Source: a virus. From it: a stretch of 55,116 nt of DNA. Numbering within the stretch: position 1 is the first letter of the stretch; the number at the start of each line of letters is the position of its first letter. Made by a program: the position numbers and the translations under genes. The notes beneath the pieces are model-generated. The model searched no databases and had not been told where the DNA came from. It saw only the letters and a program-made list of their open reading frames with translations. Where the stretch lies: positions 1-55,116 of the IMG/VR virus record IMGVR_UViG_3300012930_000005; one strand, written 5' to 3'. Below are positions 7,096-49,286 of the stretch, one piece after another.

Positions 7096-7131
7096 ACGAC
7101 GTTTCACGGCGGTACGGCGGGAGGGGAATTT

Positions 7132-7158
7132 CGCGTGGCGGCGAGGTTCCCCTTTTTA
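7132..7158 (+). terminator. Rho-independent terminator after the capsid unit
   Basis: AGGGGAA (7132-7138) pairs with TTCCCCT (7147-7153) and is followed by TTTTA. It separates the capsid genes from the connector and tail genes. Confidence 0.75.
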
Positions 7159-7174
7159 TGTTGGGGGAATGGAT

Positions 7175-32619: not shown

Positions 32620-33330
32620 ATGCCGCCGAAGAAGACCGCCACGGTCGTAGTGAAGGAACCGGAAACCGCCATCATCGTCACACAAACCTCAACGCTCGAA
32701 GAGCAAGCCGCCGCCATCGTTGTAAGCGATAAGAAGTCAGCAGACAAAGCAGCCGAGCTACGCTCTTCTGCCAAGACTCTACTCGCCCAGGTGAACGACA
32801 CCTTCGACCCTTCTATCGGAGATGCGTTCAAGCTTCATCGCGGGTTGATAGCAACGAAGAAGAAGTTCGCTACGCCTATCGAGGAGGTCATCTCTGGACT
32901 CGGCTTTAGACTGAGTCGTTACGCTAACGAGCAAGAGGCGCTACGCCTAGCAGAACAGCGCAAGCTGCAGGAACAGGCACGCAGAGACCAGGAAGAGGCA
33001 GCGCTCGCTCAGGCGGCTCTGTACCAGCAGCAAGGCAACGAAGAGGCAGCGGAAGAGGTAATGCGTGATGCCATCGAATCGGACGCTCCTACGGTCATTG
33101 TGCCGAGAGAGAAGATCGAGGGTGTATCGTTCCGCAAGGTAGTGAAGTGGGAGATTACGGATATCACGAAGATTCCTCTCAACTTCCTGCAGATCGCACG
33201 GAACCCTTCTAACGGATTGAACCAAGAGATTAGCACCAGCGGGTTAGGTGCTTACATACGGTCGCAGGGAGTATCTGCGATGAAAGTCATCCAGGGCGTT
33301 CGCGTCTGGGAAGATTCCACTACCGTCTAA
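32620..33330 (+). CDS. Coiled-coil protein of the recombination cluster
   Basis: At 236 residues. An N-terminal helical part, then a long coiled coil (residues about 95-145; RLAEQRKLQEQARRDQEEAA) and a C-terminal beta domain (VSFRKVVKWEITDITKIPL, ending VIQGVRVWED). Similar proteins accompany phage annealing proteins and exonucleases, as I recall; their biochemical role is not clear. AAAGGA precedes the ATG. Confidence 0.6.
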   Translation: MPPKKTATVVVKEPETAIIVTQTSTLEEQAAAIVVSDKKSADKAAELRSSAKTLLAQVNDTFDPSIGDAFKLHRGLIATKKKFATPIEEVISGLGFRLSRYANEQEALRLAEQRKLQEQARRDQEEAALAQAALYQQQGNEEAAEEVMRDAIESDAPTVIVPREKIEGVSFRKVVKWEITDITKIPLNFLQIARNPSNGLNQEISTSGLGAYIRSQGVSAMKVIQGVRVWEDSTTV

Positions 33331-34002: not shown

Positions 34003-34551
34003 ATGGCCGAATCATTCGTAAGCAAACGCATCAGAGTAACACTCCACGGCGCAGATCTTCTCCGTATCAGAGACGAGAAACGCCACCACTTTCGGATGTC
34101 AATCAACCTTAGCGAAGACGGTATGCTTGCCGGGTTTGCTGAGTGGGTTCAGAACAACTATTCACACATGCAGAAGTCGATCAACTCCGCTGATAAGACC
34201 AAGTTAGCGAAGAAGCTTGAGAGTATGTCTTTGGGTTTCTGGGCCACTGAGAAGATAAGAAGCAAGTTCTTTTCTCAGGTGAACGAAGCTACATTGACCG
34301 GCTTCCGTATGGAACGGCACGGAGACGGCGACGAAGCCCAGGTTTTCCTGTACTTTAGCGCGTACTTCCCAGGCAGAGAAGAGATTCATGCTTGGACGTG
34401 GGATCACAAGACGATGGACTTCTGGATGGACTTCGAACAGCAACAGCGTGATCTGGATCTGGAAGAGACGAATGACTTCGATTCGGAACAATCAGACAAT
34501 GATCGCGGTGAAGATGACGATGAAGAAGTTGACGAAGAAGACGAAGAGTAG
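34003..34551 (+). CDS. Protein with very acidic C-terminus
   Basis: At 182 residues. A globular part (residues 1-145; FVSKRIRVTLHGADLLRI, TGFRMERHGDGDEAQVFLYF) is followed by about 35 residues that are mostly Asp/Glu (GEDDDEEVDEEDEE). An acidic tail after a globular domain is seen in DNA mimics and in single-strand binding proteins, but no OB-fold motif was recognised. AAAGGAAG lies before the start. It is the last gene before the hairpin-rich leader of the initiator gene. Confidence 0.65.
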   Translation: MAESFVSKRIRVTLHGADLLRIRDEKRHHFRMSINLSEDGMLAGFAEWVQNNYSHMQKSINSADKTKLAKKLESMSLGFWATEKIRSKFFSQVNEATLTGFRMERHGDGDEAQVFLYFSAYFPGREEIHAWTWDHKTMDFWMDFEQQQRDLDLEETNDFDSEQSDNDRGEDDDEEVDEEDEE

Positions 34552-34595
34552 TGTAACCTAGGTGGTATCAGATCGCTGGCGCGTGATGATATCAG

Positions 34596-34663
34596 CTCTC
34601 AGGTAGCTCCTGAGAGTAGGTGGGGGGAGTTCTCAGGCTCCCCCTTACCGCCTTACCTGAGAG
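34596..34663 (+). promoter_or_regulatory. Mutually exclusive hairpins in the initiator leader
   Basis: Segment A, CTCTCAGGTA (34596-34605), pairs either with B, CCTGAGAG (34609-34616, 8 pairs, 5-base loop), or with D, TACCTGAGAG (34654-34663, 10 pairs). Between them GGGGGAG (34623-34629) pairs with CTCCCCC (34638-34644), extendable on both sides. D overlaps the ribosome binding site GAGAGG of the initiator gene, so A:D pairing would hide it, whereas A:B pairing frees it. This is the layout of an attenuator or translational switch. Confidence 0.6.
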
Positions 34664-34671
34664 AGGAATGA

Positions 34672-35559
34672 ATGAAGCTCATCCAGATAATCGACCGACC
34701 AATTGCCTTTCAAAGATCATTCGTCTACATGACGAAGAGCATAAACGCAGCTCTGATGCTATCCCAGGCCGTGTACTGGTCTAACAGAACCACGCTCTCT
34801 GACGGTTGGTTTTACAAGGTACGCGATGAGTGGGAAAACGAGACAGGACTCACCCGCACAGAGCAAGAGACTGCCCGTAAAATACTTCGGAATCTAGGGA
34901 TACTGGAAGAGAATCTCCGTGGTGTTCCGGCTAAGATGCACTATCGAATCAACGAAGACAACCTGCGGACTTGCTTGCTGGAAACCAGCCGTACAGTTGG
35001 CGGGAAACCTGCCGACAGTGATGTAGGAAACCTGCCAACATATATAGGAACAGAGACTACTACAGAGACTACAGCAGAGAGCACAACTAAGGCGCTTTCT
35101 ACGAAAGCTGTATCGAAGTTCCGTCTCCCTGATTGGATTGATTCCGAGAGATGGAACGACTATGAGGACATGCGGAAGAAGTTGAAGAAGCCTATGACGG
35201 ACAAGGCTCGCTCTCTCGCGGTCGGCAAGCTGGTGGAACTAGAGGTACAGGGCTCGCCGCACGAAGCAGTTCTAGAGCAATCAATCATGAACTCATGGCA
35301 AGGTCTGTTCCCTGTTAGGGACGAAGGAGGAGCACGTGGAACTTCAAAGGCACAACAGCGGACCACTGGAATGGTCAACGCCGGAAGAGAGGTTATCGCC
35401 GGAATATCTCAAATGGATCGTAACGGAGCTTACGCGAATCGGAGTGATGGTGGGACAGGAGGTGAGCAAGGAGCGCCTACTCTTGACGGCAGAGTGCATA
35501 CGCGACAACGGAGTCGAGCGCTTACGGATGGAGAAAGCATTCCTGAAAGCTCAGACTGA
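34672..35559 (+). CDS. Replication initiator-like protein
   Basis: At 295 residues. The N-terminal 110 residues carry a winged-helix-like region (MLSQAVYWSNRTTLSDGWFY, then LTRTEQETARKILRNLGILEE), as in DnaD/initiator-type phage proteins. A Thr/Ser linker (TETTTETTAESTTK) leads to a C-terminal helical domain (WNDYEDMRKKLKKPMTDKARSLAV) similar to DnaD-type tails. The last 75 residues are low-complexity and lie over the next gene. It should bind the origin or load helicase. GAGAGG lies before the ATG and within the leader structures. Confidence 0.6.
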   Translation: MKLIQIIDRPIAFQRSFVYMTKSINAALMLSQAVYWSNRTTLSDGWFYKVRDEWENETGLTRTEQETARKILRNLGILEENLRGVPAKMHYRINEDNLRTCLLETSRTVGGKPADSDVGNLPTYIGTETTTETTAESTTKALSTKAVSKFRLPDWIDSERWNDYEDMRKKLKKPMTDKARSLAVGKLVELEVQGSPHEAVLEQSIMNSWQGLFPVRDEGGARGTSKAQQRTTGMVNAGREVIAGISQMDRNGAYANRSDGGTGGEQGAPTLDGRVHTRQRSRALTDGESIPESSD

Positions 35560-41967: not shown

Positions 41968-42696
41968 TTACAAAGCTGGTGACAATTGAACGTTTTCAAC
42001 AACTTGCACATCGTGTTTTTGTAATTGACTTGGAATCTGTTGCCCTGCGGCGAATCGGATAAGAATCTTACCGACAGTCGCAGCCTTCCATTCACCCCCA
42101 TTTCTCGCATATTGACCAACGTAATTGAGGTTCTTTGCGATATCGAGATAGGTCAAACCTTCGTCTCTCATGCGCCGCATCCAGTCCAAGGTTGGACGCT
42201 CATCCTCGTTCGCGCCGTATGGCTTCCTTCCTTCGCAGCGACCGTGGGATATCTTGTGGCGCTGCCGAGCCCCACGAAGCCGTAGAACGATTACGCTCTT
42301 CTCGTATTCAGCGATGCATCCGAAGATCTGGCGTACCAGAACGCGGGAAGGATCAGAGGAGCAAAGATCAGGTTCAGCGGTAGAGAGAAGCTCATAGCCG
42401 CGCTTCTGCATATCGGCTATCAGAGTCTCCTGAACCATCAGGTCACGTGCGAGTCGGTCCAGCTTCTCGATCAGGACGACCTTTACATCGTTGTCCTCTA
42501 GATCCACGAAGAGGCTTTGTAGAGCCGGACGGTCGTCCAGCTCCTTTGTGCCGGAGACGCCCTCTTCGCGGTAAGTCTTGACTATCTCGATACCGCGTTG
42601 AGCAGCGTACGCTTCACACGCCAAGTACTGACGTCGGAAGCCGTCACCCTCAACCTGTCCGGCACCTGAGACGCGGAGGTATACGTAAGCCTTCAT
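41968..42696 (-). CDS. Serine site-specific recombinase
   Basis: At 242 residues. Resolvase-type catalytic domain with YLRVSGAGQ (Ser10 is the nucleophile), LDRLARDL near 80 and the E-helix. A Recombinase-family region follows (GRKPYG, then LDIAKNLNYVG and a W..ATV.KIL ending), much shorter than in large serine integrases (over 450 residues). It could be a resolvase, invertase or compact integrase; no attachment site was identified. It starts by ATGA overlap with the RNase H stop. Confidence 0.8.
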   Translation of the reverse strand: MKAYVYLRVSGAGQVEGDGFRRQYLACEAYAAQRGIEIVKTYREEGVSGTKELDDRPALQSLFVDLEDNDVKVVLIEKLDRLARDLMVQETLIADMQKRGYELLSTAEPDLCSSDPSRVLVRQIFGCIAEYEKSVIVLRLRGARQRHKISHGRCEGRKPYGANEDERPTLDWMRRMRDEGLTYLDIAKNLNYVGQYARNGGEWKAATVGKILIRFAAGQQIPSQLQKHDVQVVENVQLSPAL

Positions 42697-43292
42697 TCTT
42701 CACCTCGTGCTTTCTTGAGTGCTGCTGAGGCTCGTGCGCGTATTTCTTCAGGATTCCACAGAGATTGACCTTGGCCGACTTCTTCGAGGAAACTCAGGCA
42801 CTCAGTCAAGGATTCGTACATCTCAGGAGCCGCTGCAGCCATAAGGCGATCTTTGGGTTCAGGCTGTAGCTTGAACACGACATTGCGTGCGTGCAGTACT
42901 CCCTTCGACAAAGCATCGCAAGCGCTGTTCTGGGCTCTTGGTATCCACGACATCTTCACTCGCGGCTTGTTGATCATGTAGAGGTACAGCGCCTCTTGAT
43001 AGTGCGGGAAGTATAGTCCACCTTTGGCTTTCCACTTACGCTGAACCTGCATGATGACAAGCTTTGAGTCGCCGTAGATGTGGATGTTGCCGACGTACTT
43101 TACGGCCTCTGTAAGAGCAGCGATGAATCCTCGATACTCCGCAACGTTGTTGGACATCTTATCGCCTACGCCGACGTAACCACCTTCTGCGTAGACTTCC
43201 ACTCCGTCAACCTTGACGAGAGCACCCCATGATGCGTGACCACCTGGGTTACGTGGTTCACACGCTCCATCGAACCAAGCTTCAATACTCAT
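42693..43292 (-). CDS. rnhA: RNase H-like protein
   Basis: At 199 residues. RNase HI catalytic residues Asp8 (FDGACEP), Glu52 (SNNVAEY), Asp75 (YGDSKLV) and Asp126 (CDALSKG) are all visible, so activity on RNA in RNA-DNA hybrids is expected. About 50 residues longer than the usual 150, with a helical extension (ESLTECLSFLEEV). It starts by ATGA overlap. In the phage it could remove primers. Confidence 0.88.
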   Translation of the reverse strand: MSIEAWFDGACEPRNPGGHASWGALVKVDGVEVYAEGGYVGVGDKMSNNVAEYRGFIAALTEAVKYVGNIHIYGDSKLVIMQVQRKWKAKGGLYFPHYQEALYLYMINKPRVKMSWIPRAQNSACDALSKGVLHARNVVFKLQPEPKDRLMAAAAPEMYESLTECLSFLEEVGQGQSLWNPEEIRARASAALKKARGEE

Positions 43293-47651: not shown

Positions 47652-48176
47652 CTTGTTATCCTCTCTTCTCTTGATTCACAACATGCACAAGATAACACAC
47701 TCCACCATGTTTACCATTGTTACTTCATCAAACCCCGCAGGTTCAGGAGCAGAAAGCAGTATTCGCCTCTCTACGATCTTTTGACGCTTATCGTAGAACC
47801 AAACCATGAGAAGAGCGCGATGTCCTGAGACGTGAGAGTGCGACGGTGTCCGAGAGGGCTTGAACTGGTGTTATCTGCAGGTGACCACCCCGTAGATCGC
47901 TGATTCCCCAGATAGAGCGATTCCCACGTGCCGGAGGGTGCTAGGCGATGTCGAAGGAGTAATCCTCTAGGCCATTGGTTGGCACGAAGAGTTGGAGGTT
48001 GTCCGGCCCCACGGCCTGAAAGAAAAGTCTTAGACGGGTTCTGTTCGATCACACACAGAAATGGTCTTTGGGGCGGAATGTAGGAATTGGTTAGGAATAT
48101 GGGAGTGTACCTAATTTTTTTAGTAGGTAGAAGGTTGTTGACGTGGGTATAGGAAGAGGATAGGAATAGAGGGGAG
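47652..48176. other. Longest intergenic region; divergent control region, possible origin
   Basis: 525 bases between two divergent operons and the only long gap. It holds a perfect 8-base inverted repeat TCTACGAT / ATCGTAGA (47770-47777, 47790-47797), a second ATCGCT / AGCGAT (47896-47901, 47916-47921), a GGCC-CCAC-GGCC repeat, and four TAGGAA copies near its right end. On the minus strand a 93-codon ORF spans 47771-48052 without a convincing start signal. No tRNA could be folded here. Such a region is a natural place for the origin or for an attachment site, but neither is shown. Confidence 0.55.
48081..48167 (+). repeat. Two pairs of TAGGAA repeats, 11 bases apart
   Basis: TAGGAAT at 48081 and 48092, then TAGGAAG at 48150 and TAGGAAT at 48161. 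In each pair the starts are 11 bases apart, one DNA turn, so a dimeric or repeated protein could bind one face. A -35 like TTGACG at 48138-48143 lies between the pairs, 17 bases before the last copy. Confidence 0.5.
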
Positions 48177-48542
48177 ATGAAGAGATTGGTATTGAAGCCT
48201 CGGAGTGACGGGATAAGCCGGATGGAGATGGGGAGACTTATGGCCTTTGACGAGTGTTACGTGGAGAAGTGGGAACCGAGGGTAGGATGGACGAGGTTAT
48301 GGACTCAGGGGTGTGTGTTGGACGAGGAGACTGCGTTTTACTTTGCGGAAAAGTATCGCGGAGTGGTTGCGCCGTATGTGAATGTGAGGGTGGTGGATGC
48401 TTACGGGCATGAGCGGCGTCAGGGCGTCTCTCGTGACCTTCCAGTAGCGATTGAGAGCGTTGGTGGCATCTCGATGGAGATCATGGGTCTGGAGCCGACT
48501 ACCTGGCCTACGTATGGTGGGTTGAAGAGAGGTGAGGAATGA
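48177..48542 (+). CDS. Hypothetical protein, first gene of the rightward small-gene module
   Basis: At 121 residues. AGGGGAG precedes the ATG. Trp/Arg-rich first half (CYVEKWEPRVGWTRLW), beta-type second. No family. Start of a long rightward unit that continues to the terminase. Confidence 0.65.
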   Translation: MKRLVLKPRSDGISRMEMGRLMAFDECYVEKWEPRVGWTRLWTQGCVLDEETAFYFAEKYRGVVAPYVNVRVVDAYGHERRQGVSRDLPVAIESVGGISMEIMGLEPTTWPTYGGLKRGEE

Positions 48543-48904
48543 GACAGGTATGTTTTTACTCTGAGAACTTGGGTCGCAACACCGTCATGGTTGATGCGGA
48601 GCAGATTGAGGCTGTTCTCAACAACGGGGTTGGAGATTCGATGCTTTGCATGAAGTCTGGAGACCGGCTGTACATCCCAGAACCTGTCGATGTTGTTCTG
48701 ATGATGATCGGTTGGAAGACGAGGATGCAACTTGAACTTGAGAAACGGACCAGAGAGGATTACAGGGACTTTCAAAACCAGATGGAGTGCAAGGTTGGCT
48801 ACGGGAAGGACGAGATGCCTCTACCTGACTTGAACAGGGCCAGCGGTAAACCGACGCCAGCGATCTGGGAAAGGCCGAAAGAAGATGACGACATCCCGTT
48901 CTAG
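48539..48904 (+). CDS. Hypothetical protein
   Basis: At 121 residues. ATGA overlap with the previous gene. Beta-type first half (MVDAEQIEAVLNNGVGD), then a Met/Glu helix (QLELEKRTREDYRDFQNQM) and an acidic end (PKEDDDIPF), a DDDIPF tail seen in single-strand DNA-binding proteins. That tail alone is not proof; no OB-fold motif was recognised. Confidence 0.6.
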   Translation: MRQVCFYSENLGRNTVMVDAEQIEAVLNNGVGDSMLCMKSGDRLYIPEPVDVVLMMIGWKTRMQLELEKRTREDYRDFQNQMECKVGYGKDEMPLPDLNRASGKPTPAIWERPKEDDDIPF

Positions 48905-49286
48905 ACAACTCGGAGACGGAGAGAAGCCAAAGGCGATTGAGCCGACTGAGGTGTTCTCTCCTGGTAGCGAGCACCACATCGACGCGGCCGAAGTGGAGAG
49001 AATCCAATCCCAAGAGGAATACTTGCGGAAGATGAGATGGGCTCAAGAGGAAGCCTGTCGAAGGGCAGGAGTAGATTTTGGAGGTTCATACCAGGTCTGG
49101 ACGAATACACCTCATTGGCATAATAGGCAGGACAGACCTGCGGAGACGGTCGAGGTAAGGCTTCCAGTTCAGAGAAAAGATTTCGGAAAACCTGTTGATT
49201 CAAACGAAGATCCTCTCCCAGAGTTCAGTATCAGGCAGGTTTACATGGACATTGAAGAAGCAAAGAGGAAGTTAGGTATCAAGTGA
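48885..49286 (+). CDS. Hypothetical protein
   Basis: At 133 residues, overlapping the previous gene by 20 bases. Charged and helical (AEVERIQSQEEYLRKMRWAQ), with a His/Trp loop (VWTNTPHWHNRQD). No family. Its stop overlaps the next GTG start. Confidence 0.6.
   Translation: MTTSRSRQLGDGEKPKAIEPTEVFSPGSEHHIDAAEVERIQSQEEYLRKMRWAQEEACRRAGVDFGGSYQVWTNTPHWHNRQDRPAETVEVRLPVQRKDFGKPVDSNEDPLPEFSIRQVYMDIEEAKRKLGIK

What the first reader, a model, noticed from the sequence alone, without database searches (positions are those of the whole stretch)
34596..34674. Mutually exclusive hairpins that could hide the initiator ribosome binding site
CTCTCAGGTA can pair with CCTGAGAG nearby (8 bp) or with TACCTGAGAG 50 bases on (10 bp), and the second pairing covers the start of the GAGAGG ribosome binding site. 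A GGGGGAG/CTCCCCC hairpin lies between, and a further CTCAGG copy is in its loop. The pattern is that of a switch setting the dose of the replication initiator.
Basis: partly seen in the sequence, partly recalled or inferred. Interest (0 to 1): 0.7.

Follow-up and report, generated by a model that had tools for sequence, protein, structure and literature searches.

The report
Folding leader before phage replication gene
A phage gene that starts DNA copying is preceded by a 120-base stretch whose RNA could fold in several competing ways, including a knot right beside the ribosome's landing site, so it may set how much starter protein is made, but no related sequence was found that could prove it.

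Summary
Four copies of one box (CTCTCAGG, orientations + - + -) lie in the 120-nt leader of an O-like phage replication initiator. A:D taken alone is chance-level, but the shared-arm, four-box arrangement is not: it is unique in 55 kb and absent from 20,000 shuffled leaders.

By rough estimates A:B, A:D and C:D are close in energy.

The claim that A:D hides the ribosome site is weak. A:D covers one base of the GAGG core, start-site opening cost is ordinary (34th of 46 genes), and A:B forms first with an estimated barrier of about 13 kcal/mol to A:D.

No homologous leader was found, so covariation is untested. Most likely this is a cis-acting translational control leader that resembles, but is not shown to belong with, the IncI repZ pseudoknot switch. 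A DNA operator or an mRNA-processing element remains possible. Many relatives lack a leader and most carry 23-nt-period repeats inside the gene, so the leader is probably not the origin.

The parts
34552..34671 (+). Whole intergenic leader between the upstream gene (TAG 34549-34551) and the initiator start codon
   Evidence: lowest-MFE region of the window; reading frame not coding-like
34563..34593 (+). Hairpin H1 (TGGTATC / GATATCA arms), first of three successive hairpins
   Evidence: RNAfold
34596..34605 (+). Box A, CTCTCAGGTA
34609..34616 (+). Box B, CCTGAGAG; 8 bp with A
   Evidence: A:B favoured by RNAfold with the full leader
34623..34629 (+). S1 5' arm GGGGGAG
   Evidence: S1 pair probability 0.97-0.99 in every context
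34630..34637 (+). Box C, TTCTCAGG, in the S1 loop; 34631-34637 complementary to D (pseudoknot) and to B
34638..34644 (+). S1 3' arm CTCCCCC (no U run after it)
34654..34663 (+). Box D, TACCTGAGAG; 10 bp with A, or 7 bp (34656-34662) with C
34663..34666 (+). Shine-Dalgarno core GAGG, 5 nt before the ATG
   Evidence: sequence
34672..35559 (+). O-like replication initiator gene
   Evidence: PHROG 9773 E 2.9e-40; tblastn matches to phage replication proteins
34960..35036 (+). Iteron-like repeats, period 23, inside the initiator gene (likely origin)
   Evidence: same period in most relatives

Best explanation
A cis-acting RNA leader that adjusts translation of the phage's O-like replication initiator. 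Shown from sequence: D, the segment touching the Shine-Dalgarno, can be taken by A in a 10-bp stem or by the hairpin loop C in an H-type pseudoknot, and A can instead be held by B. Inferred: as the RNA is made, A:B and S1 form first, leaving D free or in the C:D pseudoknot beside the ribosome site; a slower change, a bound factor or a passing ribosome moves D to A and lowers initiation. The direction of control by the pseudoknot (activating, as in IncI repZ, or repressing) and the trigger are not known.
For: Non-random four-box cluster. Lowest MFE of 11,006 windows. Strongest H-type pseudoknot candidate of the phage, with workable loop lengths, ending at the SD. States lie within about 2-3 kcal/mol of each other by rough estimates. 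The sense strand folds 12 kcal/mol better than the antisense, near the 5th percentile of windows. The adjacent gene is a replication initiator. The leader frame is not coding-like.
Against: No homologous leader was found, hence no covariation. None of 69 other distinct leaders of relatives has the pattern. Start-site opening cost is ordinary, 9.2 kcal/mol, 34th of 46. The balance depends on unknown transcript ends. Near-identical repeated boxes would also suit a DNA-binding protein.
Confidence: 0.45

Rival explanations
1. A DNA operator. The boxes are half-sites for a dimeric DNA-binding protein (phage repressor or the initiator itself) that controls transcription into the replication genes; the RNA folds are a by-product of the palindromes.
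For: Four near-identical half-sites in alternating orientation, A and B forming a 21-bp palindrome CTCTCAGGTAGCTCCTGAGAG.
Against: Spacing differs between the two pairs (5 and 18 bp); no other such palindrome in the record; no sigma-70-like promoter in 34300-35000; the S1 stem and the register of C in its loop are unexplained; the sense strand folds better than the antisense.
Confidence: 0.22
2. An intercistronic mRNA processing or stability element: the hairpins mark or protect an mRNA end between the upstream gene and the initiator gene, without switching.
For: Three successive strong hairpins in the only sizeable gap of this gene run, S1 without a U run; a similar GGGGGAG/CTCCCCC hairpin without a long U run lies between genes in unrelated phage contigs.
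Against: Does not explain four copies of one box nor the C:D register.
Confidence: 0.2
3. A repZ-like switch with a leader peptide: a 14-codon ORF (GTG 34562 or 34563 by the reading, ending with TAG in box A) is translated, the terminating ribosome covers A and B, D is released to C and the pseudoknot opens the initiator start.
For: The ORF ends inside box A, and its start lies about 10 nt after the stop of the upstream gene. The logic matches ColIb-P9 repZ.
Against: 52% of shuffled leaders hold an ORF this long; no clear Shine-Dalgarno.
Confidence: 0.07
4. Transcription attenuation or programmed readthrough of the upstream TAG.
For: The frame stays open from TAG 34549-34551 to a TGA at 34669-34671 that abuts the initiator ATG.
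Against: S1 is followed by TTACC, not a U run. Codon likelihood of the extension is below 97% of real coding windows, and TAG ends 13 of 58 listed reading frames.
Confidence: 0.03

Closest known systems
ColIb-P9 (IncI-alpha) repZ leader pseudoknot switch, and the IncB and IncL/M repA leaders
   Same: A hairpin loop upstream of a replication initiator can pair with the segment just before the initiator ribosome site; repZ translation depends on that pseudoknot (PMC8383071; titles of the primary papers in the references of PMC10724649).
   Different: Phage O-like initiator, not a plasmid Rep; leader peptide not supported; no antisense promoter-like site found; four near-identical boxes; no sequence relation in the plasmid collection.
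T4 gene 32 translational operator
   Same: A phage replication gene with a pseudoknot in its mRNA leader used for translational control (PMC535899).
   Different: There an unstructured stretch of more than 40 nt with UUAAA/UAAA repeats separates the pseudoknot from the start; here the pseudoknot abuts the SD and there are no such repeats.
C4 antisense RNA of phages P1/P7 (RF01695)
   Same: From own knowledge: a phage leader RNA with short complements to a target ribosome site.
   Different: No Rfam match.
Phage P4 CI RNA with seqA/seqB/seqC
   Same: From own knowledge: several short, mutually complementary segments in the leader of a phage replication operon.
   Different: P4 works through transcription termination with a trans-acting RNA; no evidence for either here.
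Lambda O-type initiators with internal origin (the downstream gene)
   Same: O-like N-terminal domain and repeats with a 23-nt period inside the gene.
   Different: Many sampled relatives have no leader at all: the start overlaps the upstream gene by 4 nt.

Membership tests
IncI/IncB/IncL-M type pseudoknot-controlled initiator leader | Hairpin loop complementary to the segment just upstream of the initiator SD | tested here: met
   C 34631-34637 with D 34656-34662, 7 bp, loops of 1/0/11 nt
IncI/IncB/IncL-M type pseudoknot-controlled initiator leader | Competing stem that sequesters the initiator SD | tested here: inconclusive
   A:D covers one base of GAGG; opening cost from the ensemble is ordinary
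IncI/IncB/IncL-M type pseudoknot-controlled initiator leader | Leader peptide whose translation opens the competing stem | tested here: inconclusive
   A 14-codon GTG ORF ends in box A, but 52% of shuffles hold one as long and there is no clear SD
IncI/IncB/IncL-M type pseudoknot-controlled initiator leader | Antisense RNA against the loop | tested here: inconclusive
   No sigma-70-like site on either strand at 34300-35000; host promoter type unknown, expression not testable
IncI/IncB/IncL-M type pseudoknot-controlled initiator leader | Sequence homology to the plasmid leaders | tested here: not met
   No match in 72,556 plasmid records at E up to 1
C4 antisense RNA RF01695, or any other Rfam family | Covariance model match | tested here: not met
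   None at the gathering score; nothing meaningful at E up to 10
T4 gene 32 type operator | Upstream pseudoknot followed by an unstructured stretch with UUAAA/UAAA repeats | tested here: not met
   The pseudoknot abuts the SD and there are no such repeats in 34552-34671 (definition)
Intrinsic terminator / attenuator | G+C-rich stem followed by a U run | tested here: not met
   CTCCCCC is followed by TTACC; no terminator-like site on the + strand at 34300-35000
Lambda O-type initiator (downstream gene) | O-like domain and repeats (iterons) inside the gene | tested here: met
   binding of the protein to the repeats was not testable

The most novel reading that the evidence does not exclude
A phage O-like replication initiator is controlled by a three-state RNA switch in which one segment at the ribosome site is contested between a long-range stem and an H-type pseudoknot, built from four copies of one 8-base box: a plasmid-style dose-control leader in a phage.
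Probability: 0.2. Interest if true: 0.65.

Novelty: new variant of a known kind. Interest (0 to 1): 0.42.

Why it matters
If true, a phage sets the level of its replication initiator with an RNA fold of the kind known from low-copy plasmids, a case of convergent dose control. It would also be a compact natural system for studying competition between a stem and a pseudoknot at a ribosome site.

Tried and rejected
Covariation: no relative of the leader was found by DNA (phages, plasmids), by the neighbouring proteins (initiator, helicase, upstream protein) or by the portal and capsid proteins.

A leader pattern search of viral contigs gave one unrelated chance hit, L019.

Rfam gave nothing.

A recoded or read-through TAG was considered and rejected on stop usage and codon likelihood.

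The leader as replication origin was judged unlikely: repeats with a 23-nt period lie inside the gene here and in most relatives.

Intrinsic terminator: no U run.

The structure of the upstream protein was predicted at pLDDT 49.8, too poor to search with.

A:D as evidence on its own was dropped: it is chance-level, so the argument rests on the shared-arm cluster and the C:D register.

Failed calls: script error; papers term errors; paper not held; malformed report.

Full report
What is there. The window is a 55,116-base virus record. Gene 34672-35559 is an O-like replication initiator (PHROG 9773, E 2.9e-40), followed by a DnaB-type helicase. In front of it lies a 120-nt gap, 34552-34671. In that gap the box CTCTCAGG occurs four times in alternating orientation: A 34596-34605, B 34609-34616, C 34630-34637 (one mismatch, TTCTCAGG) and D 34654-34663. 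C fills the loop of GGGGGAG/CTCCCCC (S1).

Is it more than chance? A:D alone is not: ten-base inverted repeats with up to 80 nt between the arms occur at five separate places in the window. The shared-arm design is. It is the only place in the window where an 8-mer finds its complement twice within 80 nt downstream; 2 of 20,000 shuffled leaders do so, and none shows the four-copy cluster. The region also has the lowest MFE of 11,006 windows of 86 nt on both strands. Against shuffles of the same composition the z-score is moderate, -2.6 to -3.3.

What was missed. C, in the S1 loop, is complementary to D over 7 bases. Together with S1 this is an H-type pseudoknot: stem 1 of 7 bp, L1 of 1 nt, stem 2 of 7 bp, L2 of 0, L3 of 11 nt, lengths that are workable by general knowledge of such folds. 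A mechanical search for Watson-Crick H-type pseudoknots with stems of 6 bp or more gave 24 of 2,750 overlapping windows; the leader's has a stacking sum of -31.7 kcal/mol and the next best -24.4. One of 5,000 shuffled leaders reaches it. Its 3' arm ends at 34662, directly before the GAGG core at 34663-34666. RNAfold cannot represent it. A rough Dirks-Pierce-type estimate puts it between +1.4 and -1.1 kcal/mol relative to the extended S1 hairpin, so it is a plausible state, not a proven one.

How strong is the hiding claim? With the full leader, A:B is favoured (about 0.7-0.97) and A:D is about 0.02-0.28. With 5' ends near 34570 or later A:D can dominate, but that also depends on the 3' end. 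The growing chain forms A:B first, and the direct-path barrier from A:B to A:D is estimated at about 13 kcal/mol, an upper bound. Keeping A:D raises the cost of opening 34661-34687 by roughly 2-5 kcal/mol over the A:B state, yet from the whole ensemble the cost is 9.2 kcal/mol, 34th of 46 starts of this phage. D covers only one base of the GAGG core. A switch by A:D alone is therefore not well supported; competition for D between A and C is the better statement.

Relatives. Eighty viral loci and seven phage records with the same N-terminal domain were fetched. Among 70 distinct leaders, window included, no other has the shared-arm pattern or a comparable pseudoknot. In many the start codon overlaps the upstream gene by 4 nt, so there is no leader. 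In 62 of 70 the best period inside the gene is 23 nt, where this window has repeats at 34960-35036. The origin is therefore probably inside the gene, and the leader an addition peculiar to this phage or its unseen kin. No homologue of the leader or the upstream gene, and no close homologue of the helicase or capsid protein, was found. The tools note that very near records may be left out, and no metagenome scan was available. Covariation could not be tested.

Rivals. A DNA operator is the main one: repeated half-sites in alternating orientation, two of them forming a 21-bp palindrome. Against it stand the unequal spacing, no promoter-like match near, and a fold 12 kcal/mol better on the sense strand, though that is only about the 5th percentile. 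A processing or stability hairpin is second: a similar hairpin without a long U run lies between genes in unrelated contigs. A leader-peptide version cannot be told from chance, since 52% of shuffles hold an ORF as long. Attenuation and readthrough are unlikely.

Comparison with the known. The arrangement works like the ColIb-P9 repZ leader, where translation of the initiator depends on a pseudoknot upstream of its ribosome site (PMC8383071; primary titles). Leader peptide and antisense RNA are not supported here and there is no sequence relation. T4 gene 32 is a phage precedent for a pseudoknot operator (PMC535899) but has a different layout. No Rfam family matches. Membership in any of these families is not claimed.

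Verdict. Most likely this is a phage-specific translational control leader (0.45). Shown: the boxes, their non-random clustering, the possible pairings and their rough energies. Inferred: that they form in the cell, that they act on translation, and in which direction.

Noticed in passing
34960-35036: Iteron-like repeats (AACCTGC / AACCAGCC / AACCTGCC) with period 23 inside the initiator gene; most relatives show a 23-nt period in the same part of the gene, pointing to a family-wide internal origin.
   Followed up: yes
34549-34671: The frame of the upstream gene stays open after its TAG up to a TGA that abuts the initiator ATG; codon use does not look coding.
   Followed up: yes
34003-34551: Orphan 182-residue protein with a strongly acidic tail, between an exonuclease-like gene (32620-33330) and the initiator; it might be a single-strand-binding protein, but no homologue was found and the model was poor.
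   Followed up: partly
41968-43292: Minus-strand recombinase: 41968-42696 matches integrase and DNA invertase families; frame 42693-43292 overlaps it by 4 bases and was not searched.
   Followed up: no
7096-7168: Strong intergenic hairpin with GGGGAA...TTCCCC arms followed by TTTTT, a likely terminator.
   Followed up: no
L110 665-684, L112 8123-8142, L111 1960-1979: The same 20-base hairpin GGGGGAGCTCAGGCTCCCCC lies between genes just before a start codon in phage contigs (L110 and L112 alike, L111 different).
   Followed up: partly
48001-49000: GC skew rises to 0.33 in this kilobase, well above the rest of the window.
   Followed up: no
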